From: Candidatus Jettenia caeni
GTDB taxonomy: Bacteria > Planctomycetota > Brocadiia > Brocadiales > Brocadiaceae
Assembly (NCBI GenBank): GCA_000296795.1
Contig: BAFH01000003.1
Coordinates: 868,401-932,400 of the forward strand
Reading direction: 5' to 3'
Length of the DNA: 64,000 nt
Part shown: positions 6,001-14,900 of the stretch, one piece after another
How the letters are laid out: the number at the start of each line of letters is the position of its first letter
Numbering within the stretch: the first letter of the stretch is position 1
Translations under genes and position numbers: made by a program
Notes under the pieces: generated by a model
What the model saw: only the letters and a program-made list of their open reading frames with translations
What the model was told of the DNA's origin: nothing
Database searches by the model: none

Positions 6001-6887
6001 TTGATCAGATAGATGATGAAAGAAATATGCGCCTACCGGTGTAGACTTTAGTATATCATTGTTATCCTTTTCTAAGATAACAACAAAGCGTTCTCTATCT
6101 CCCGAGTGTCTCGAAAACCACTTATTAATAATACTCTTACCAGTTTTGGGGTCGAACGGATAGTAAAAAAAATATTGCAAGAAGATATATCCATTGTATT
6201 CATAAGCAGTGCCATAAATTTTACTATTATTCCTTAAGTCGTCAAAATTAGAAGTACCTTTAGGATAAGAGAGATTTGTATCAATTGCAGCAACATAGGG
6301 TTCGTCTGTTGTACCTTCAAACTCTAGCAAGCTATATTCTTCATCAACACTATCCCATGGTCTTGTTATTCCATATTCAAACCCCTCGTCGTTATAATAT
6401 GCTATATTTATACCTTTATTTGAATTCTCCTCTATAACATTCGCATCTTTCAAGTAGAACTCTTTATCAAAAACACCTTGTTTAAAATCTTTTTTCCCCA
6501 CTGCAACACGATAATTATGATAATAATTAAAATTTTCGAAAGTGTTTAATTCTTTTACATATATTCTTACTATATCTCTTATATCAATAGGATAGTAAAT
6601 CTCTCCTTCTTTTAGTTCTCCATCTTTATATCCCCAAGGATCTTTGTTTCGTTCTTTTGATTTATTATAATTACCAAAATAGACATAGGGAGCATATCTA
6701 TCTAAAAGATCTATAATAATACCTTTATCGATATTATTATGATCTCTTATAAAAAATGCTGTCCAAAGTTCGTCAAAATTGCCATCATTATTATCATCTT
6801 CATGTTCAATACAACTTATTCTATATTTACCTATCAAATCATTATTAAAATTTTTAGCTTCTATTTCAAAATCTTCCCATTCTAAAT
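1..6887 (-). pseudogene. C-terminal part (cut by window edge) of giant secreted multidomain protein, separated from its start by an IS
   Basis: One uninterrupted minus-strand frame runs from the IS junction to the left edge, about 2,290 codons, with no stop seen at the points I translated. In N-to-C order I read these parts. About 6870-5650 is a VPS62-like domain (APYVYFG, YFFYYPFDP, GDRERFVVILE, HVYVAQGSHG). About 5470-5200 is a Big/Ig domain. About 4790-4600 is a bacterial SH3-like segment (VNARETPGG, GWSIQ). Several FN3/Ig domains cover 4560-3420. A first right-handed beta-helix (VYETIQDAIDAASPGDTVYL, then N-rich turns) covers about 3360-2560. A second (YSTIQAAIDAAQDGDMVYVY) covers about 1970-1200. 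A PKD domain lies at about 1165-930 and FN3 at 880-620. Two further Ig-like domains follow, the last of Big_5 type. The protein is probably an extracellular adhesin-like or carbohydrate-active surface protein; no catalytic function can be assigned. Without the upstream fragment it has no signal peptide. Confidence 0.85.
6879..6887. repeat. Target-site duplication, left copy (ATTCTAAAT)
   Basis: The 9-bp sequence ATTCTAAAT lies directly left of the IS5-like element and recurs at 8039-8047 directly right of it. Removing the IS and one copy joins the two gene halves in frame (NLEW followed by EDFEIEA). Confidence 0.95.
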
Positions 6888-8038
6888 GGCTTTGTTGCAC
6901 AAAGCCGGATAAATATCTGATATACTAAGAGAATAAGGGAAAGAGTACCATAAATTATTTTGTAGGATAAGTATATCAGTATGAAGCAACAGAAACGGGA
7001 CGTAAAGAAACTAGCAGGAACAGATAAAAGGCCGCTCCAAGAACAGAAAAAGAAGAAATCAAAGAAGGACTACCGGGTAAGAAACTGGTCAGAGTATACA
7101 GAGGCATTAAGACAAAGAGGGTCTCTTGATGTATGGATAGATGAGGGGGTACAAGAGAAATGGAATGCAGAGCCAACGGGCCAAAGAGGGTCTCCCCCTA
7201 CGTATAGTGATCTGGCCATAACATCAACGCTTCAGTTGGGTATCGTATTTCATCAAAGACTTCGTCAAACAGAAGGATTAGTCAAATCACTGTTTCGGCT
7301 CATGAATATCCCTCTGAAGGTTCCTGATTATTCAACCCTGTCTCGAAGAGGTGAAACAGTGGGAATTTCTTTAGCGAAAGAGAAGAAAGAGAATCTGGTA
7401 TTAGTCCTTGATAGCAGTGGGTTAAAGGTCTATGGGGAAGGGGAATGGAAGGTAAGACAGCATGGATATACCAAGAGAAGAACATGGAGAAAGATTCATT
7501 TGTCCATTACTCCTGATGGAGAGATAAGAGCACAAGAGCTTACCGAGAATAGTACTGGTGATTCAGAGGTAGTAGATAAGCTTCTAAGCCAGGAAGAGTC
7601 AAGGATTGATACCTTTGCCGGTGATGGCTCCTATGATAAGAGGAAGGTCTATGAGAGTTGTAAGAGAAGAGGGATTCTCAGAATACTTATTCCTCCGAGG
7701 AAGGATGCAAAGATATGGCAGCATGGCAACTGCAGTACAGAGCCACATGTCCGAGATGAGACGATAAGGCATATCAGAAGAACTTCCCTAAGACAGTGGA
7801 AAGAGCGTGTTGGTTACCACGTCCGCTCTCTGGTTGAGAATGCGATATTTCGATTCAAAACCATCTTTGGCGATAGGCTTTATGCCAGAAATCTTGCTCA
7901 ACAAAGAACAGAAGTAGGTATCAAGGCATCTTTTTTAAACCGTATGATGAAATTAGGAATGCCGGAAAGTTATGCGATCTCATAAATTGCATACTACAGG
8001 GAAAAACTGCTTTTTTATCGGATTTGTGCAACAAAGCC
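6888..8038 (+). mobile_element. IS5-family (IS903-like) insertion sequence, complete, 1151 bp
   Basis: The element is bounded by terminal inverted repeats. Both ends begin GGCTTTGTTGCACAAA, followed by GCCGG at the left and TCCGA at the right (read inward). It is flanked by the 9-bp duplication ATTCTAAAT, a length typical of the IS903 subgroup. It holds one intact transposase gene. The identical duplication and full-length reading frame suggest recent insertion. The left end is itself a near palindrome (GGCTTTG-TTGCA-CAAAGCC). Confidence 0.95.
6981..7985 (+). CDS. IS5-family DDE transposase
   Basis: This 334-residue protein cuts and pastes the surrounding element. The N-terminus is lysine-rich and basic (residues 1-35). 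The RNase-H-like catalytic core shows D144 in LVLDSSGLKVYGEGEW, D215 in FAGDGSYDKRKVYE and E286 in RSLVENAIFRFK, the DDE spacing and context of the IS903 branch. The C-terminal RxxxEVGIKASFLNRM segment is also family-like. The start is the ATG 93 bp inside the left end; no strong ribosome binding site is visible. The frame is intact, so the element may still be active. Confidence 0.95.
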   Translation: MKQQKRDVKKLAGTDKRPLQEQKKKKSKKDYRVRNWSEYTEALRQRGSLDVWIDEGVQEKWNAEPTGQRGSPPTYSDLAITSTLQLGIVFHQRLRQTEGLVKSLFRLMNIPLKVPDYSTLSRRGETVGISLAKEKKENLVLVLDSSGLKVYGEGEWKVRQHGYTKRRTWRKIHLSITPDGEIRAQELTENSTGDSEVVDKLLSQEESRIDTFAGDGSYDKRKVYESCKRRGILRILIPPRKDAKIWQHGNCSTEPHVRDETIRHIRRTSLRQWKERVGYHVRSLVENAIFRFKTIFGDRLYARNLAQQRTEVGIKASFLNRMMKLGMPESYAIS

Positions 8039-8759
8039 ATTCTAAATTAATAACTCTGGGTTCGTTATAACTGCTCCATACCAAATTTTCATCTTCATCC
8101 TCAACTCCTAAATGAATTCTATAACCATTCCCTATAAATCTTAAAGAGAAATTTGCAGGTTTACCACTTCCGTTAGGAGCATTCAGTTTAAAAAAAACTC
8201 CTTTTTTATCTAATCCCCCAACTTTTAATTTAGAATATTTGATCTTATAAGTTCCTGGTTCATTTATCAAAATATCGATAGAACCATCTTTTTCATTAAT
8301 ATGGAAAGACTGCACCCGCATCCAATATTTTTTGTTTCCGTGTTGTTTTCGTAATTTATACACTTGCAACATTTCTTCACGATTTTCGTCAATCCCTTTG
8401 CCAGGAAATACCTTTATATTTAAAGGCCTCTTTATTTTAGAGGTCCCAGCATTTTCTACTTTCAAAGAAAATAATCCAATTATATCCTCGTTATATGGCA
8501 TTACTTCTGATTCAGATAATGTTATATTAGCATCTTCTTTCAATGCATTTGACGGAACTTCCAACATTAAAGCTGTTTTAGTACTTAACGTTATATTAAT
8601 ATTACCACTTCTAACGCCCAAATATTGAGTAGCAGAGTTTTTTTCTTGCGATAAAGCATTTTTAGAAATAAAAACACTTATAAACACGAGCAAAAAGATA
8701 TTTAATACGATATGAAGTAATCCAGACACCACATCCATTTGCTTATTTGTTGTATTCAT
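8039..8759 (-). pseudogene. N-terminal fragment of the giant secreted protein, truncated by the IS
   Basis: This is the start of the gene continued at 6887-1. Translation begins at the ATG at 8759 after a GAGAG-like site. Residues 1-38 are a signal peptide with a long hydrophobic core (GLLHIVLNIFLLVFISVFIS). About 200 residues of beta-rich sequence follow, with a ZU5-like look (ALMLEVPSNALKEDANITLS), ending at PRVINLEW at the IS junction. In the present sequence the frame reads on into the IS and stops at 7980, giving a 259-residue truncated, possibly secreted product. Before insertion the protein would have exceeded 2,500 residues. Confidence 0.85.
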
Positions 8760-8825: not shown

Positions 8826-8879
8826 AAAAAAAGCCTTACTGCAAAGATATTTGTTAAAAACATCTTCGGCAGTAAGGCT
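8826..8879 (-). terminator. Intrinsic terminator overlapping the riboswitch 3' half
   Basis: On the minus strand the arms AGCCTTACTGC and GCAGTAAGGCT (8869-8879 and 8832-8842) pair perfectly. The inner AAGAT/ATCTT pairing extends the stem, and a run of seven T follows. Its 5' arm is the UAGCCUUACUGCCG segment that the aptamer also needs, so the two folds exclude each other. Confidence 0.85.
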
Positions 8880-8966
8880 ATCTTTCTGATATTTCTTATC
8901 TGGAGATGACTTGAGCTGAGATCCTACACTTTGCGCCCCCTGATCACTCAGGGTTTACCTTTATCG
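8863..8966 (-). promoter_or_regulatory. Cyclic-di-GMP-I (GEMM-I) riboswitch aptamer
   Basis: Read on the minus strand, the segment shows GGTAAACC. A perfect hairpin CCCTGA-GTGA-TCAGGG with a GNRA tetraloop comes next, then GGCGCAAAG, the strand GTGTAGGATCT and, after a variable loop, AGATAGCCTTACTGCCGAAG. These match the GEMM-I consensus order (GGCAAACC, GNRA hairpin, GACGCAAAGC, GGNCUA, AUAGCC, UGCCG). The position equivalent to G20 is G, favouring c-di-GMP over cGAMP. The 3' part overlaps the terminator, so ligand binding should prevent termination and switch the giant gene on. Confidence 0.82.
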
Positions 8967-8996
8967 TGGTATTTGTACCGCAAAATTATTTTTACC

Positions 8997-9025
8997 ACTA
9001 AACCATTTGTAGAATTATATGTCAA
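8997..9025 (-). promoter_or_regulatory. Sigma-70-type promoter for the riboswitch-controlled giant gene
   Basis: On the minus strand TTGACA (9025-9020) is separated by exactly 17 bp from TTTAGT (9002-8997). Transcription would start near 8990, about 25 nt before the aptamer. Confidence 0.6.
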
Positions 9026-9797
9026 GGGAAAAACTAATTGTTTATTTGAATAGTTCTCTTTTACTTCTTGTTTAATAAAATTTTTTATCTTTTTGAGAAA
9101 TAGGCATATTGGTTTGATTATATCTATTTGCCGGATAGGATGGGCATACATAATTACTCAAGATAAGGTGCAAACCTGACCTGAGAGCTATCCAAAAAGA
9201 CTATATTTTAAGGGTTATTGAGAATAAGCCAAAGCCAGGAGCAATCAAAGGAGAAGTAATCCTCCTTGTCTCCTTTAGAAACTTATCCTTACCTACAAGT
9301 CGGGTAGAGAGTGAAGGGAAAGGCGCAGTAAACCAGGAGGAACATGAAGACCTGGGGATGCAAAATTTTGTATCTGTACTGAGCATGTTGAACGGATAAA
9401 AAGCAGAGAGAAAAAAATATGAAAAACCGTAACCATTGAGTTTTCAGAAAGAACTATCAGGCAATACAAGCATTATAAGAGAAGCGAAGCAGGTGATGAT
9501 TCACATACACCCTTAATCCTCTATCAAAGGGTTAAGGAGTGCGTTCAGGAATCGACATGATTCCCCATTATGGGTTCAATTGTACCTTGAACCCCTATCC
9601 TTTACATGGAGTCGGTAGCTCATGTTGTTCTCATAGTCTCAGCGCCAGGGAAATATTTCAAATTGAGGGTTCAGGTTATAAACCTGAACCCGCTTGAGTA
9701 AGATTTTACGAATCTCCTGTCAAAGGTAGTCTCATGTATGATTCATGTAACTACCGAATAAGAGAACAATGACCAGGAGTATTTCTATGTAAGTTGT
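9026..9797. other. Gene-poor stretch with repeats and IS-end remnants
   Basis: I see no convincing gene here. The stretch holds a 19-bp IS50-like end at 9282-9300, a decayed GAGACGCAA-type palindrome near 9350-9375, and one copy of a roughly 130-bp direct repeat at 9564-9692. Confidence 0.6.
9564..9692. repeat. Imperfect direct repeat, copy 1 (~130 bp)
   Basis: It matches 10849-10980, sharing GTTCTCATAGTCTCAGCGCC, AGGGAAATATT and AACCTGAACCCGC. It contains the palindrome GGGTTCAGGTT-ATA-AACCTGAACCC. Confidence 0.8.
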
Positions 9798-10031
9798 CTA
9801 TAGGTGTGCAACTGGTATCGTCTCAGTTCTTTCAGGAAGCCGTTTCCCATTGGCAATCTCTTCGACTGCCTGTAATATTGTGGAATGATAATATCGGTAA
9901 CCACACGTATCGCATACACCAACAGGAACGTCTTCAAGCATAATAAAGCCAGTCTTATGCTTAAAGATCTCCTTTTTTATCAAACGCTTTTTTACAATAC
10001 CTTCACAGTACTCACATGTATAACCGTACAT
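9798..10031 (-). CDS. YgiT-type (MqsA-like) zinc-finger protein, putative antitoxin
   Basis: The product is 77 residues with two Cys pairs, CEYC at positions 7-10 and CDTC near 39-42, plus GYRYYHS, the signature of the YgiT zinc-binding domain found at the N-terminus of MqsA antitoxins. No helix-turn-helix follows, so it is the short form. It lies 90 bp downstream of the DUF4258 gene on the same strand, a pairing that recurs in bacterial toxin-antitoxin loci. Function in this organism is inferred from that pairing. Confidence 0.8.
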   Translation of the reverse strand: MYGYTCEYCEGIVKKRLIKKEIFKHKTGFIMLEDVPVGVCDTCGYRYYHSTILQAVEEIANGKRLPERTETIPVAHL

Positions 10032-10055
10032 TTTTTCTCCTCAATGCTCTATATG

Positions 10056-10080
10056 CATGGACAAACGGAGTTTGTCCATG
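10056..10080. repeat. 25-bp hairpin of the GACAAAC/GTTTGTC family
   Basis: CATGGACAAAC-GGA-GTTTGTCCATG has perfect 11-bp arms. Two relatives with compensated arm changes lie at 44580-44604 and 44641-44665. It lies between the two toxin-antitoxin genes. Confidence 0.8.
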
Positions 10081-10121
10081 CCACCCTAACCCTGTATAAA
10101 TAAAATCAATTTTCTATACAA

Positions 10122-10406
10122 TCAGGTAATTTTGTAAACCGTTATAATTAGGAAAACTCCTGTTTCCTTAAAACGACCTACTACTCCTATTATTGTAGAG
10201 CGATCCGTACCTGTTCCTTCTATCACAAATTTGACGCCACGAGGGTCATTTTTCTCTGTCTTTTTAATTTTACCACGTAAAATGGCACTTTCAATATCAC
10301 AAATATCAAGGCTATCCTCTGCCATTTCTTCTACAGCATGATACGTCATATCATAGTTACCCGATCTCATGGTATCACGTATCTTTTCAATTGTTCGCCG
10401 GGGCAT
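10122..10406 (-). CDS. DUF4258 domain protein, putative toxin of a two-gene module
   Basis: This 94-residue protein has the DUF4258 pattern: YDMTYHAVEEMAEDSL with the characteristic His, then an ILRGKI stretch and the beta-rich RSTIIGVVGRFKETGVFLIITVY. DUF4258 proteins are RelE/HigB-like in fold and usually precede a small antitoxin, here the YgiT-type gene 90 bp downstream. A GGAG site lies about 10 nt before the ATG. Toxicity is an inference from family and context. Confidence 0.75.
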   Translation of the reverse strand: MPRRTIEKIRDTMRSGNYDMTYHAVEEMAEDSLDICDIESAILRGKIKKTEKNDPRGVKFVIEGTGTDRSTIIGVVGRFKETGVFLIITVYKIT

Positions 10407-10650
10407 TGTTACGACTCCAATCTCCTGTATGCTAATCCTTGTACCATTCCTCTTTTACCATTGCAGAATGCGGCTATATTATGTATACATTGTAACACGT
10501 GAGGTATATTCAAGCAATTTTAAACCTTTTGTTTAGATTTTTTCCCCAACTATATCCAAATCCTGAAAGTACTCCATACCTACTGCCTTGAGGGACTGAT
10601 GACTCGAAGGTTTCACTCGGAACTGGCGTTTCGTGGAATGCATAACCTTC

Positions 10651-10792
10651 TCTTATTATTCTACCCTCATCTGAAGAGGAAAAACGGTAAGAGTTTCCCT
10701 GCTGAAAGAGAGCAAAGAGAAGCTGGTGGTGGTCCTTGATAGCAATGGTTTAAAGGTATACTAAGAAGGTGAATGGAAGATAAGATTTAGAA
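10651..10792 (+). pseudogene. IS5-family transposase relic
   Basis: One frame reads YYSTLI, stop, RGKTVRVSLLKESKEKL, then VVVLDSNGLKVY, stop, EGEWKIR. This aligns with residues 117-159 of the intact transposase at 6981-7985 (DYSTLSRRGETVGISLAKEK, VLDSSGLKVYGEGEWKVR). There are two stops, and no ends or remainder. Confidence 0.8.
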
Positions 10793-10848
10793 AATTATTT
10801 GAGGTCTCCCAGAGGTATAAAAACATAGGTTTAATCCATTGTCTTCGA

Positions 10849-10980
10849 CCCATTGCGGGTTCAATTTTGCACATTGAATCCAGATGCTTTGCGCGGAGTC
10901 GATGGCTCATATTGTTCTCATAGTCTCAGCGCCAGGGAAATATTCCACATTGAGGATTCAGGTGATAAACCTGAACCCGC
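10849..10980. repeat. Imperfect direct repeat, copy 2 (~130 bp)
   Basis: This is the partner of 9564-9692. The pair brackets the YgiT/DUF4258 genes. Confidence 0.8.
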
Positions 10981-11326
10981 CCAGAGAAGCAAGGTAAACC
11001 AAGAAGAACACGAAGTACACGAAGAAAGAATGACCTGGAGACGCAAGATTTTGTGAAAGACGTAGAGAAACAAGATCTTGCGTCTCTCCTGAGCATATTG
11101 AACAGATAAAAATGAGATGTGGAACTCTCTCATTCTTCATGTACTTCGTGTTCTTCGTGGCGTTTTAAAGATGTGGGTAGGGATAAGTTATTAAGGGGGA
11201 CTTTAAAAATTTCCCCTTAATAAAGGGAGCAAAGGGGTTGTAATCTGCATACAGATAAAACCGGCTGAACTTTTGCGGAAAACCTGATTTATTTAGCTAT
11301 AAATTTCATCGTTGTTTTTATTGAGA

Positions 11327-11590
11327 TCAGGATATCTCTAATATCTCTATTTTCACACGGTAGCCAAGTTTATGGAGATAGTCGCAGCAGTCGTCCCAAT
11401 ACAGGCCAAATTCTCGCACATCGGCAAGTCCTATCCGCGCGGTGATGTCTCTTAAAAGCTCAAAATACTGATCTTCAAAATCAGCTTCTCTCATCATATC
11501 CTCTGCCCAACTTATAAGATTTGATGTGTCTATTCTTCTGTTGATATAATCTATCAGCATATTTACGAGCATTTCTCTGGTTACAATCAT
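11327..11590 (-). CDS. Small conserved-looking hypothetical protein, downstream member of a gene pair
   Basis: I recognise no named family. The protein is about 87 residues, acidic and mostly helical (LVNMLIDYINRRI, SNLISWAEDMM) with aromatic-rich YWDDCCDYLHKLGYRV at the end. I place the start at ATG 11590 because GGGAG lies about 9 nt before it; an ATG at 11608 would overlap the upstream gene by 14 bp. The tight coupling with 11595-11846 suggests co-translation and possibly a toxin-antitoxin-like or other two-protein module, but no motif proves it. Confidence 0.65.
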   Translation of the reverse strand: MIVTREMLVNMLIDYINRRIDTSNLISWAEDMMREADFEDQYFELLRDITARIGLADVREFGLYWDDCCDYLHKLGYRVKIEILEIS

Positions 11591-11594
11591 GTCC

Positions 11595-11846
11595 TTATTC
11601 TCCCACATTTTTATGGCCCTCGTCTTTAGGAGTTTTTTCGTGAATTTCCATTAACTGATCTATGTCATTATAAATTTCCTGGTAAAACCTGGCAGTCTCT
11701 TCGCTGGCATTTACCTCTTTAACGTATCTCGCCCTTCTTCCGTGTCTGCCTTTTACCTCAAGCCAGTATTTTCTACCGCCATTATTGAGTTTCTCCCAAT
11801 GGGGAAATTTTCTTTCATGTAATTGTCTTCTGTCTTCGATACTCAT
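11595..11846 (-). CDS. Small basic hypothetical protein, upstream member of a gene pair
   Basis: The protein has 83 residues and is rich in Arg, Lys and Trp: RRQLHERKFPHWEKL, then a beta-rich KYWLEVKGRHGRRARYVKEV that could bind nucleic acid, then an acidic helical tail. Its stop lies 4 bp before the preferred start of the next gene. I do not recognise the family. The basic-plus-acidic neighbour arrangement resembles type II toxin-antitoxin pairs, which is only a suggestion. Confidence 0.65.
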   Translation of the reverse strand: MSIEDRRQLHERKFPHWEKLNNGGRKYWLEVKGRHGRRARYVKEVNASEETARFYQEIYNDIDQLMEIHEKTPKDEGHKNVGE

Positions 11847-11925
11847 TATGATTTGTCCAAAAGAAAGAATATTTGGTTTGTAAATCGTTGAATATCAAAT
11901 AATTTTACCAGATTATCATACATTT

Positions 11926-14900
11926 TCAAACAGATATGATCTTGCCTGATCTGAGGAAGATGAATTTGAACTCAGGGTTGTCTCTGTTAAGACATCGCTT
12001 TACTGCTTCAGTATAGACCTCTTTTTGATGGCGGTATTTACCTAACTTCTCTGCAAACTGATCGCCGGCACGAACGTTCTTCCCACTATTACCCGCAAAA
12101 GAAACCGCTTCCGCAAAGGAAAGGTCTGTTGTCTTCATCGTGTCTGTCTTGTACTCAGCAATAATGATACGGTTATCTATCTTATAGAGGATATCGATTT
12201 TTCCTCTCATAATTTGTCCATTCCACGGAAGTAAGAAGGGCACTTCCCGCCCAAGAATTTCCGCACTTTGCAGCTCTCTGTATGCCTCCGAATCAATAAA
12301 ATCCAACAGTATTTTGAATGTCTCTGCTTTTATAAACTCCAGGTCCCGCGCTTGTATTGTATACAGAGATTTTGTAACCATCCCTTCATATATTCCCGGA
12401 GAGGAAAAGAATGAAGGGTTGATATAAACCTTAGAACCCCCTTCTTCTGGAACAGAAGTTGATGTATGTATCGGAGTCGTTGACATAACTCCTGCATCCT
12501 CATTTTGCGTGGTGAACACCCATCCCATAGTGGATTCTGTTAATCTGCAGAGTTCTTCTCTCGTCCCGTGGAAATCCCATCTCTCCAATACATAATGACA
12601 CATGGAGCCAATTAACATAGCAAGGTTTAAACGGTCTTCAGCAATCTTCCCGACTCCGCCACTGAAAGCAGGGGGGGGCTCCTGGTGAGATATCCCTTCC
12701 GCGGAGAGGGACGTTGGGGAGATGAAGACAGGGGTTTGTTTTATCTCATCCATTGCCTGTTTACGCTTCCTCCATATTTCCACCCAAGATACCCAATCAG
12801 CACTCCACTTTTTCTCCCTTTGGGTTTTTGAGGGACGACGTATACCGTCGAATTTGAAATGTTCTGCAAAAATCTCTGCATTTCCTAAAGAGATTTTTTT
12901 TCTACTGGAGGAATTATTTTTTAATCCCCCTTGATCACCCTTTAAAAAAGGGGGAGAATGCCCTTTATCTCCCTTGAGAAAAGGGGGAGATTTTGGTGTT
13001 TTTTCAAAAGAGGAAATTTCCGGCGTTTTTGTAGAAGGTGATGAAGGGCTATTTTCTGAATCTGCGGGCAAGCTGCTAGTGCTCGTAATTATTTCGCTAT
13101 CAAACTCAATACCTGCGGATTTCTTCATCGATTGTGTAATCAGTCCCATATAGGATTTATCATCGTACTTCAATAAACCGGTAAGGATGAGTCGTTCCTT
13201 TGCTCTGGTCATTGCCACATAGAGGATCCGTTTCTCTTCTTCCCATGAGCGGTCATTTAATTTTTTTTCAATGAGAATACTGTGAAGATTCCTTACCTGC
13301 CGGTTCCCTCTGCCAATCACTATGCCCGTTGTGGATGTAGACCAATCGAATACGGCCGGACCCGGGACTTCATTGTCATTTCTTACTTCACCGTGTAAGT
13401 TACCCAGGATTACGACAGGAAATTCCAACCCCTTCGATTTATGGATTGTCAGGATTTTCACGACATCCAGCGTCTCGTCGGCGAGAGGACTCTCTCCCTC
13501 TTCCTTTGCCTCCTTTATTCGCCTGGTTATACGGCCGATGAAGGTTTTCAAAGAGATCGCATCAGATTGTTCCTGATCGCATGCCATCTGGTAGAGTTTC
13601 CGGAGGTTAGCCAGCTTCTGTTCGCCGTGCCATGCAGAGGCTGTGATCTCGGCAATATGGGTATTGTCCATAATCTCGTCAATAAGCTGAGAAACGGGAA
13701 GTATGCCTGCACGAGCATGGAATTTTCTGAGAAGGTTATAAAACTCTTTTACTATGGGTATAAAATCGGGCTGATTCAGGGTTTTGTCATTTTCTTTTAA
13801 TCCCCCTTGATCCCCCGTTAGAAAAGGGGGAGAATTTGTTTGATCCTCCTTGAGATCCGAGATGTCTTTACGGTAATCGAACAGATTATGTATCCGAAGC
13901 TCGTATATCTCACGGTCGGTTAAGCCTACCATAGGCGAACGCAGCACACCTGCCAGGGCAATTGTATCGTAAGGGTTTTCTGTAATACGGAGGAGATTCA
14001 TAAAATCGAGAACTTCCTGGGTAGTATAGAAGTATTTTTCACCTTCTACAAGGTAAGGAATACCGTATCGTTTAAAGGCCTCAATATACGGCCTTACCTG
14101 GGTAAATGCGCGCAGAAGCAAGGCGACATCCTTGTATCGGAACTTTCGCAGTCTATTTTCTGCCAGTTCATCCCTTATAGCTTCATTATTTACCTGTTTT
14201 ATTATCCATCGTGCAATCCACTCGGCCTCAGCCTCCCTCGATTCATCGGCTTTCATCTCCTTTCCCTCATTATCAGACACAAGGATGATCTCAACTGTTT
14301 GTGAGGGATGTGCCTTCGGTCTATTGGCATGGATTGGAATGTAGCAAGGTTGCAAGCCAGGCCGTTCTATCATGATTCTTCCATCAAACAACTGGTTTAT
14401 TACATCAATGATACCGCTATGGCTTCTAAAATTTTCCTGTAATTTTAAAACCTCGTTCGGCCTGCAAATCTGTTTTACTACCTGCTCATAGGCCTCAATA
14501 TCTGCCCTGCGGAAGGAATAAATGGATTGCTTGGGATCGCCAACAATAAAAAGCTTTCCCGGCTCAGGGACTACCTCACAGGCTTCCCCGCTATAATGTC
14601 CCGATGCTTCGGAAAGGAAAAGAACGATTTCATACTGAACAGGGTCGGTATCCTGAAACTCATCCACGAGTATGGCCCTGAACTCAGATTTCAGTTTATC
14701 CCGAATAAAACGGTATTCACTATTCCGGAGCAAATCCCTGGTTAAGGTAAGAAGACCGTCAAAAGAGACGTACCCCTGTGATATATACGTTTGCCGAAAA
14801 GCCTTTGCAAACGGGATGATGAGGTCTAATACGACCTTTATAAACCCATCATCAACAGTTTTTAACTTCTTTAATAGATTATGACTCTCTTTTACCAGCG

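What the first reader, a model, noticed from the sequence alone, without database searches (positions are those of the whole stretch)
8826..9025. c-di-GMP-I riboswitch with overlapping terminator controls a giant secreted protein
The minus-strand leader holds in order a TTGACA-17-TTTAGT promoter, all GEMM-I aptamer landmarks (GGTAAACC, GNRA hairpin, GCGCAAAG, AGATAGCC, TGCCGAAG) and a perfect terminator whose 5' arm is the aptamer's 3' strand. Family knowledge says this layout is an ON switch. It links c-di-GMP, a signal of surface life, to a surface protein above 2,500 residues.
Basis: partly seen in the sequence, partly recalled or inferred. Interest (0 to 1): 0.75.

Follow-up and report, generated by a model that had tools for sequence, protein, structure and literature searches.

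The report
c-di-GMP riboswitch before IS-broken giant gene
A genuine c-di-GMP-sensing RNA switch of a well-known class, one of about 21 in this anammox bacterium's genome, sits in front of a giant secreted-protein gene that a transposon has cut in two, so the switch is ordinary and its present target is probably broken.

Summary
Window 9025-8826 (minus strand) holds a TTGACA-17-TTTAGT promoter, a c-di-GMP-I (GEMM-I) aptamer (59.8 bits against RF01051, cut-off 35) and an intrinsic terminator (-26.9 kcal/mol, z -8.6). The terminator's 5' arm is the aptamer's 3' strand, so the two folds exclude each other. That predicts a transcriptional ON switch, as in the studied Geobacter pilM switch. Aptamer plus terminator are unchanged (0/143) in one Jettenia relative while the DNA upstream differs by 4%.

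The target claim needs correcting. The gene was one frame of about 3,451 codons with a signal-peptide-like start, but a 1,151-bp IS5-family element (6888-8038, 9-bp target duplication, 17 near-identical genomic copies) interrupts it after codon 240. The switch now leads into a 259-codon fragment. Both Jettenia relatives keep the switch; neither has this gene intact behind it.

The genome is an anammox Candidatus Jettenia with 21 such aptamers; one Brocadia relative has 56. The overlapping design occurs in 30 of 73 Jettenia and 35 of 40 Brocadia copies examined. Ligand binding and switching direction were not tested. Verdict: new member of a known kind.

The parts
8997..9025 (-). Promoter: TTGACA (9025-9020), 17-nt spacer, TTTAGT (9002-8997)
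   Evidence: Sequence; both hexamers invariant in two Jettenia orthologs while four spacer bases differ. TTGA[CA][AT] lies upstream of 38 of 73 Jettenia aptamers, shuffles average 15.8, max 26.
8864..8968 (-). c-di-GMP-I (GEMM-I) riboswitch aptamer
   Evidence: RF03167 59.7 bits; RF01051 59.8 bits
8862..8879 (-). Shared switching strand AGCCTTACTGCCGAAGAT: 3' side of the aptamer and 5' arm of the terminator
8826..8879 (-). Intrinsic terminator: hairpin 8879-8832 and T run 8832-8826
   Evidence: -26.9 kcal/mol, z -8.58; same design in 30/73 Jettenia and 35/40 Brocadia leaders
8039..8759 (-). 5' part of the giant gene, 240 codons with a signal-peptide-like N-terminus; the frame runs on into the IS to 7980 (259 codons in all)
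6888..8038 (+). IS5-family insertion sequence, 1,151 bp, inverted ends GGCTTTGTTGCAC, 9-bp target duplication ATTCTAAAT (6879-6887 and 8039-8047); 17 near-identical full copies in the genome, 14 with perfect 9-bp duplications
6981..7985 (+). IS5-family transposase, 334 aa
   Evidence: NF033579 E 8.6e-90, PF13737, PF01609
1..6887 (-). 3' part of the giant gene, continuing to 2,756 bases beyond the window start; Big_7, Big_5, PKD and beta-helix domains; no in-frame stop

Best explanation
A transcriptional c-di-GMP-I riboswitch of the ON type. RNA polymerase starts a few bases after TTTAGT and transcribes the aptamer. With c-di-GMP bound, the strand AGCCTTACTGCCGAAG stays in the aptamer, its downstream complement cannot form the terminator, and transcription runs on. 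Without ligand the same strand pairs with ATCTTTGCAGTAAGGC and transcription stops at the T run. It is one of a genome-wide set of such switches. Its target was a giant secreted protein of about 3,451 residues; in this assembly an IS5-family element has split that gene after codon 240, so the switch now probably drives only a short fragment. Shown from sequence: aptamer, terminator, shared strand, insertion. Inferred: ligand, direction of switching, secretion, loss of function.
For: Covariance-model hits; terminator energy and z-score; shared strand and late take-over by the terminator in growing-transcript folding, about 25 nt after the aptamer is complete, as in the studied pilM ON switch (PMC9262584); G20- and A47-equivalents of c-di-GMP type; canonical GGDEF enzymes in the genome; 0/143 and 4/143 changes in orthologs against 28/676 upstream; recurrence of the design; IS with target duplication and restored frame.
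Against: No ligand or transcription data. Plain folding of the aptamer alone does not give the GEMM-I fold (such folding omits tertiary contacts and ligand). The -10 hexamer is weak. Many dispersed copies are related, so recurrence is not fully independent evidence. The IS could be absent in part of the population.
Confidence: 0.85

Rival explanations
1. An OFF switch: ligand binding favours termination, as in the C. difficile Cd1 switch.
For: GEMM-I switches of both signs are known (PMC9262584). About 22 Jettenia leaders have a terminator separate from the aptamer, which could act that way.
Against: Here the terminator uses the aptamer's own 3' strand, so bound aptamer and terminator cannot coexist.
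Confidence: 0.07
2. It senses a different cyclic dinucleotide (cGAMP) or is a GGC-type variant with altered specificity.
For: Rfam's best label is RF03167, c-di-GMP-I-GGC.
Against: The GGC consensus G at the A47 position is A here, the hit is only 0.7 bits over cut-off, and RF01051 scores 59.8. Readable copies in Jettenia and Brocadia all have G and A at the two positions. The seven fully readable GGDEF domains have Asp, not the Ser of cGAMP-making enzymes.
Confidence: 0.06
3. The switch is now a relic: it still works as RNA but controls no functional gene at this locus.
For: IS insertion here. In G001 a 3' gene remnant follows the switch and the giant frame beyond is in two pieces; in G002 (Ca. 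Jettenia ecosi) no such gene follows.
Against: Aptamer and terminator are more conserved than their flank. The 3' part of the gene has no stop over ~3,200 codons, so the insertion is recent. A 259-residue fragment could still be secreted. This is compatible with the main explanation.
Confidence: 0.4

Closest known systems
c-di-GMP-I riboswitch (GEMM-I), Rfam RF01051
   Same: All aptamer landmarks, model score well over cut-off, G20 and A47 equivalents
   Different: Nothing beyond ordinary sequence variation; long P3 loop
pilM cGAMP riboswitch of Geobacter metallireducens (PMC9262584)
   Same: Terminator formed with the aptamer's 3' strand, mutually exclusive folds, ON logic, similar binding window
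   Different: Senses cGAMP; the window's key bases are of the c-di-GMP type
c-di-GMP-I-GGC, Rfam RF03167
   Same: Overall fold; marginal score over cut-off
   Different: A instead of G at the A47 position
IS5-family insertion sequence (NF033579 transposase)
   Same: Transposase family, GGCTTTGTTGC ends, 9-bp target duplication
   Different: Nothing unusual found

Membership tests
c-di-GMP-I riboswitch (RF01051) | Covariance-model score over the curated cut-off | tested here: met
   59.8 bits against 35
c-di-GMP-I riboswitch (RF01051) | G20 and A47 ligand-contact bases | tested here: met
   G in AAAGGTAAACC, A in CGCAAAG
c-di-GMP-I riboswitch (RF01051) | Selective binding of c-di-GMP | not testable with these tools
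   Needs in-line probing
c-di-GMP-I riboswitch (RF01051) | Expression platform downstream of the aptamer | tested here: met
   Overlapping intrinsic terminator
c-di-GMP-I-GGC (RF03167) | G at the A47 position | tested here: not met
   Consensus CGCGAAG, window CGCAAAG
GEMM-Ib cGAMP riboswitch | A at position 20 | tested here: not met
   G; the G20A link to cGAMP binding is from PMC6274999 and family knowledge
Transcriptional ON riboswitch | Ligand lowers termination | not testable with these tools
   Inferred from mutually exclusive folds
IS5 family insertion sequence | IS5 transposase, terminal inverted repeats, short target duplication | tested here: met

The most novel reading that the evidence does not exclude
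Anammox bacteria of the genera Jettenia and Brocadia run much of their c-di-GMP output through one aptamer-terminator design copied many times (21 to 56 aptamers per genome in those counted closely), in front of pilus, glycosyltransferase, metalloprotease and giant secreted-protein genes. The switch stays at its locus while the genes behind it turn over, making it a portable regulatory part.
Probability: 0.4. Interest if true: 0.55.

Novelty: new member of a known kind. Interest (0 to 1): 0.33.

Why it matters
By itself it adds one more c-di-GMP-I riboswitch. In context it shows that anammox bacteria, which work as biofilms and granules in wastewater treatment, carry a large set of these switches: in Jettenia 21 to 28 aptamers beside 0 or 1 PilZ domains (a common protein receptor domain for c-di-GMP). 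That gives a testable prediction: raising c-di-GMP should switch on pili and giant secreted proteins together. It also warns that naming a switch's target from the nearest reading frame can fail when a transposon has entered the gene.

Tried and rejected
GGC-variant and cGAMP readings: rejected on key bases. An 11-bp target duplication with a 1,149-bp IS: first read, corrected to 9 bp and 1,151 bp after comparing 17 copies. Relatives of the giant protein's N-terminus: none in genome contigs or in the related genomes searched. Literature on c-di-GMP riboswitches in anammox bacteria: nothing relevant found in the held library; it omits most subscription journals, so this is not proof of novelty. 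My first regular-expression classifier of terminators failed and was replaced by a folding-based one; its cut-offs are mine and a few classes may be wrong. In the pair count a few of the 27 hairpins are separate, non-overlapping terminators and supply many of the two-sided changes; the overlapping ones are nearly invariant, so covariation supports the hairpin family more than the overlap itself. A first alignment of the orthologs was in the wrong orientation and was redone. Weak miRNA matches at the terminator are far below cut-off and are chance hairpin hits.

Full report
WHAT WAS CHECKED. The aptamer at 8968-8864 is found by cmscan as RF03167 (59.7 bits, cut-off 59, E 1.5e-11) and scores 59.8 bits against the parent family RF01051 (cut-off 35). 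The same search gives no hit in 14 control genomes. The terminator hairpin (8879-8832) folds at -26.9 kcal/mol with z -8.58; no shuffle of 200 reached it.

WHICH VARIANT. Rfam's best label is the GGC variant, but the consensus G at the A47 position is A in the window (CGCAAAG), and the G20 equivalent is G. These are the c-di-GMP-type bases. Wherever my script could read them, the 73 Jettenia and 40 Brocadia copies have the same two bases. I did not verify the third contact (C92) by numbering; the CCG of the 3' junction is present. The genome has ten GGDEF domains; the seven I could read fully carry GHxxGD and GG[DE]EF, the canonical aspartate where cGAMP-making enzymes have serine (PMC6456294; that the D of GHxxGD is this residue is from my own knowledge of the family).

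HOW IT SHOULD WORK. The strand AGCCTTACTGCCGAAGAT is at once the 3' side of the aptamer and the 5' arm of the terminator. In folding of a growing transcript the terminator pairing takes over when the 3' end reaches about 8841-8837, roughly 25 nt after the aptamer is complete. The Geobacter pilM switch is built this way, has a 25-nt binding window and is an experimentally studied ON switch (PMC9262584). ON is therefore an inference from anatomy plus a close precedent, not a measurement.

CONSTRAINT. The leader has orthologs in both other Jettenia genomes searched. In G001 the 143 bases of aptamer plus terminator are unchanged while 28 of 676 upstream positions differ; about six changes would be expected at that rate. 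In G002 four of 143 differ: two in the P3 loop, one at an unpaired P3 position and one in the terminator loop. Both promoter hexamers are invariant while four spacer positions differ.

THE TARGET IS BROKEN. The frame starting at 8759 has a signal-peptide-like N-terminus (my reading, no predictor was run). It is interrupted by an element whose IS5-family transposase lies on the other strand (6981-7985; NF033579, E 8.6e-90). The exact element is 6888-8038, 1,151 bp, with inverted ends and a 9-bp duplication ATTCTAAAT. Seventeen near-identical full copies lie in this genome, 14 with perfect 9-bp duplications. The element plus one duplication (1,160 bases) accounts for the frame difference between the two parts, which together make about 3,451 codons ending 2,756 bases before the window start. 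The 3' part has no stop and carries Big_7, Big_5, PKD and beta-helix domains, so the insertion is probably recent. As assembled, readthrough gives a 259-codon product.

THE GENE TURNS OVER, THE SWITCH STAYS. The first 241 codons have no homolog in the related genomes searched. In G001 the switch is followed by a 3' gene remnant, then a giant reading frame in two abutting pieces (824 and 2,380 codons) whose last 816 residues are 89% identical to the window protein. In G002 no such gene follows. A 338-aa protein gene and an adenine-glycosylase-like gene beyond are shared by all three.

GENOME CONTEXT. A 100% match over 2,567 bases shows that G002 is Candidatus Jettenia ecosi, so the window is a Jettenia. 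Its four contigs and roughly 95% DNA identity to J. ecosi fit Ca. J. caeni KSU-1 (ANI 94.91% in PMC6828613), but the name was not proven. The genome has 21 RF01051 matches at E <= 0.001 (18 over cut-off), the two relatives 24 and 28, and Brocadiaceae genomes up to 56. That the genus with 56 is Brocadia rests on the number of species and on named contigs (L050 in the same genus matches a named Brocadia contig at 100%). Overlapping terminators occur in 30 of 73 Jettenia leaders and 35 of 40 Brocadia leaders; about 22 Jettenia leaders have a separate terminator and the rest no clear one. Genes behind own-genome switches include PilM, a pilin-like protein, a prepilin peptidase, a glycosyltransferase, a matrixin-type protease, beta-helix proteins, a response regulator with a partial GGDEF domain, and another giant PKD protein of at least 3,109 residues. 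Known protein receptor domains look few: one PilZ and four MshEN.

VERDICT. The claim about what it controls must be amended to a gene that is interrupted in this assembly. It is a new member of a known kind; the copy number in anammox bacteria is the more interesting part.

Noticed in passing
window 9025-11926: A 2.9-kb stretch without a long reading frame, made largely of repeats found many times elsewhere in this genome and its two sister genomes, including remnants related to the IS5 element.
   Followed up: no
L020, L023-L028 (own-genome leaders): Many aptamers carry the same inserted repeat (CAGTGTCAGTATAAGTAACAGACACTTACACT and variants) in the P3 loop; the repeat was found only in the three Jettenia genomes among 59 searched.
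   Followed up: partly
L015-L018, L022: A second design: a complete aptamer followed by a separate terminator whose 5' arm resembles the aptamer's 3' strand, in front of pilus and glycosyltransferase genes. Its sign, ON or OFF, is unclear.
   Followed up: partly
L012, L013: The highest-scoring aptamers (84-87 bits) lack a clear terminator and lie about 65 nt before a start codon, which suggests translational control; two or three nearly identical copies lie close together.
   Followed up: no
L014:5019-6725: A riboswitch stands before a response regulator with a methyltransferase domain and a partial GGDEF domain, a possible feedback link to c-di-GMP.
   Followed up: no
L027:2673-11999: Another overlapping-terminator switch leads into an uninterrupted frame of at least 3,109 codons with some 22 PKD domains, a better intact example of switch plus giant protein.
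   Followed up: partly
L133 (G001:C1:3345000-3364999): The related giant gene in G001 is in two abutting frames (824 and 2,380 codons), consistent with a frameshift or a sequencing error.
   Followed up: no
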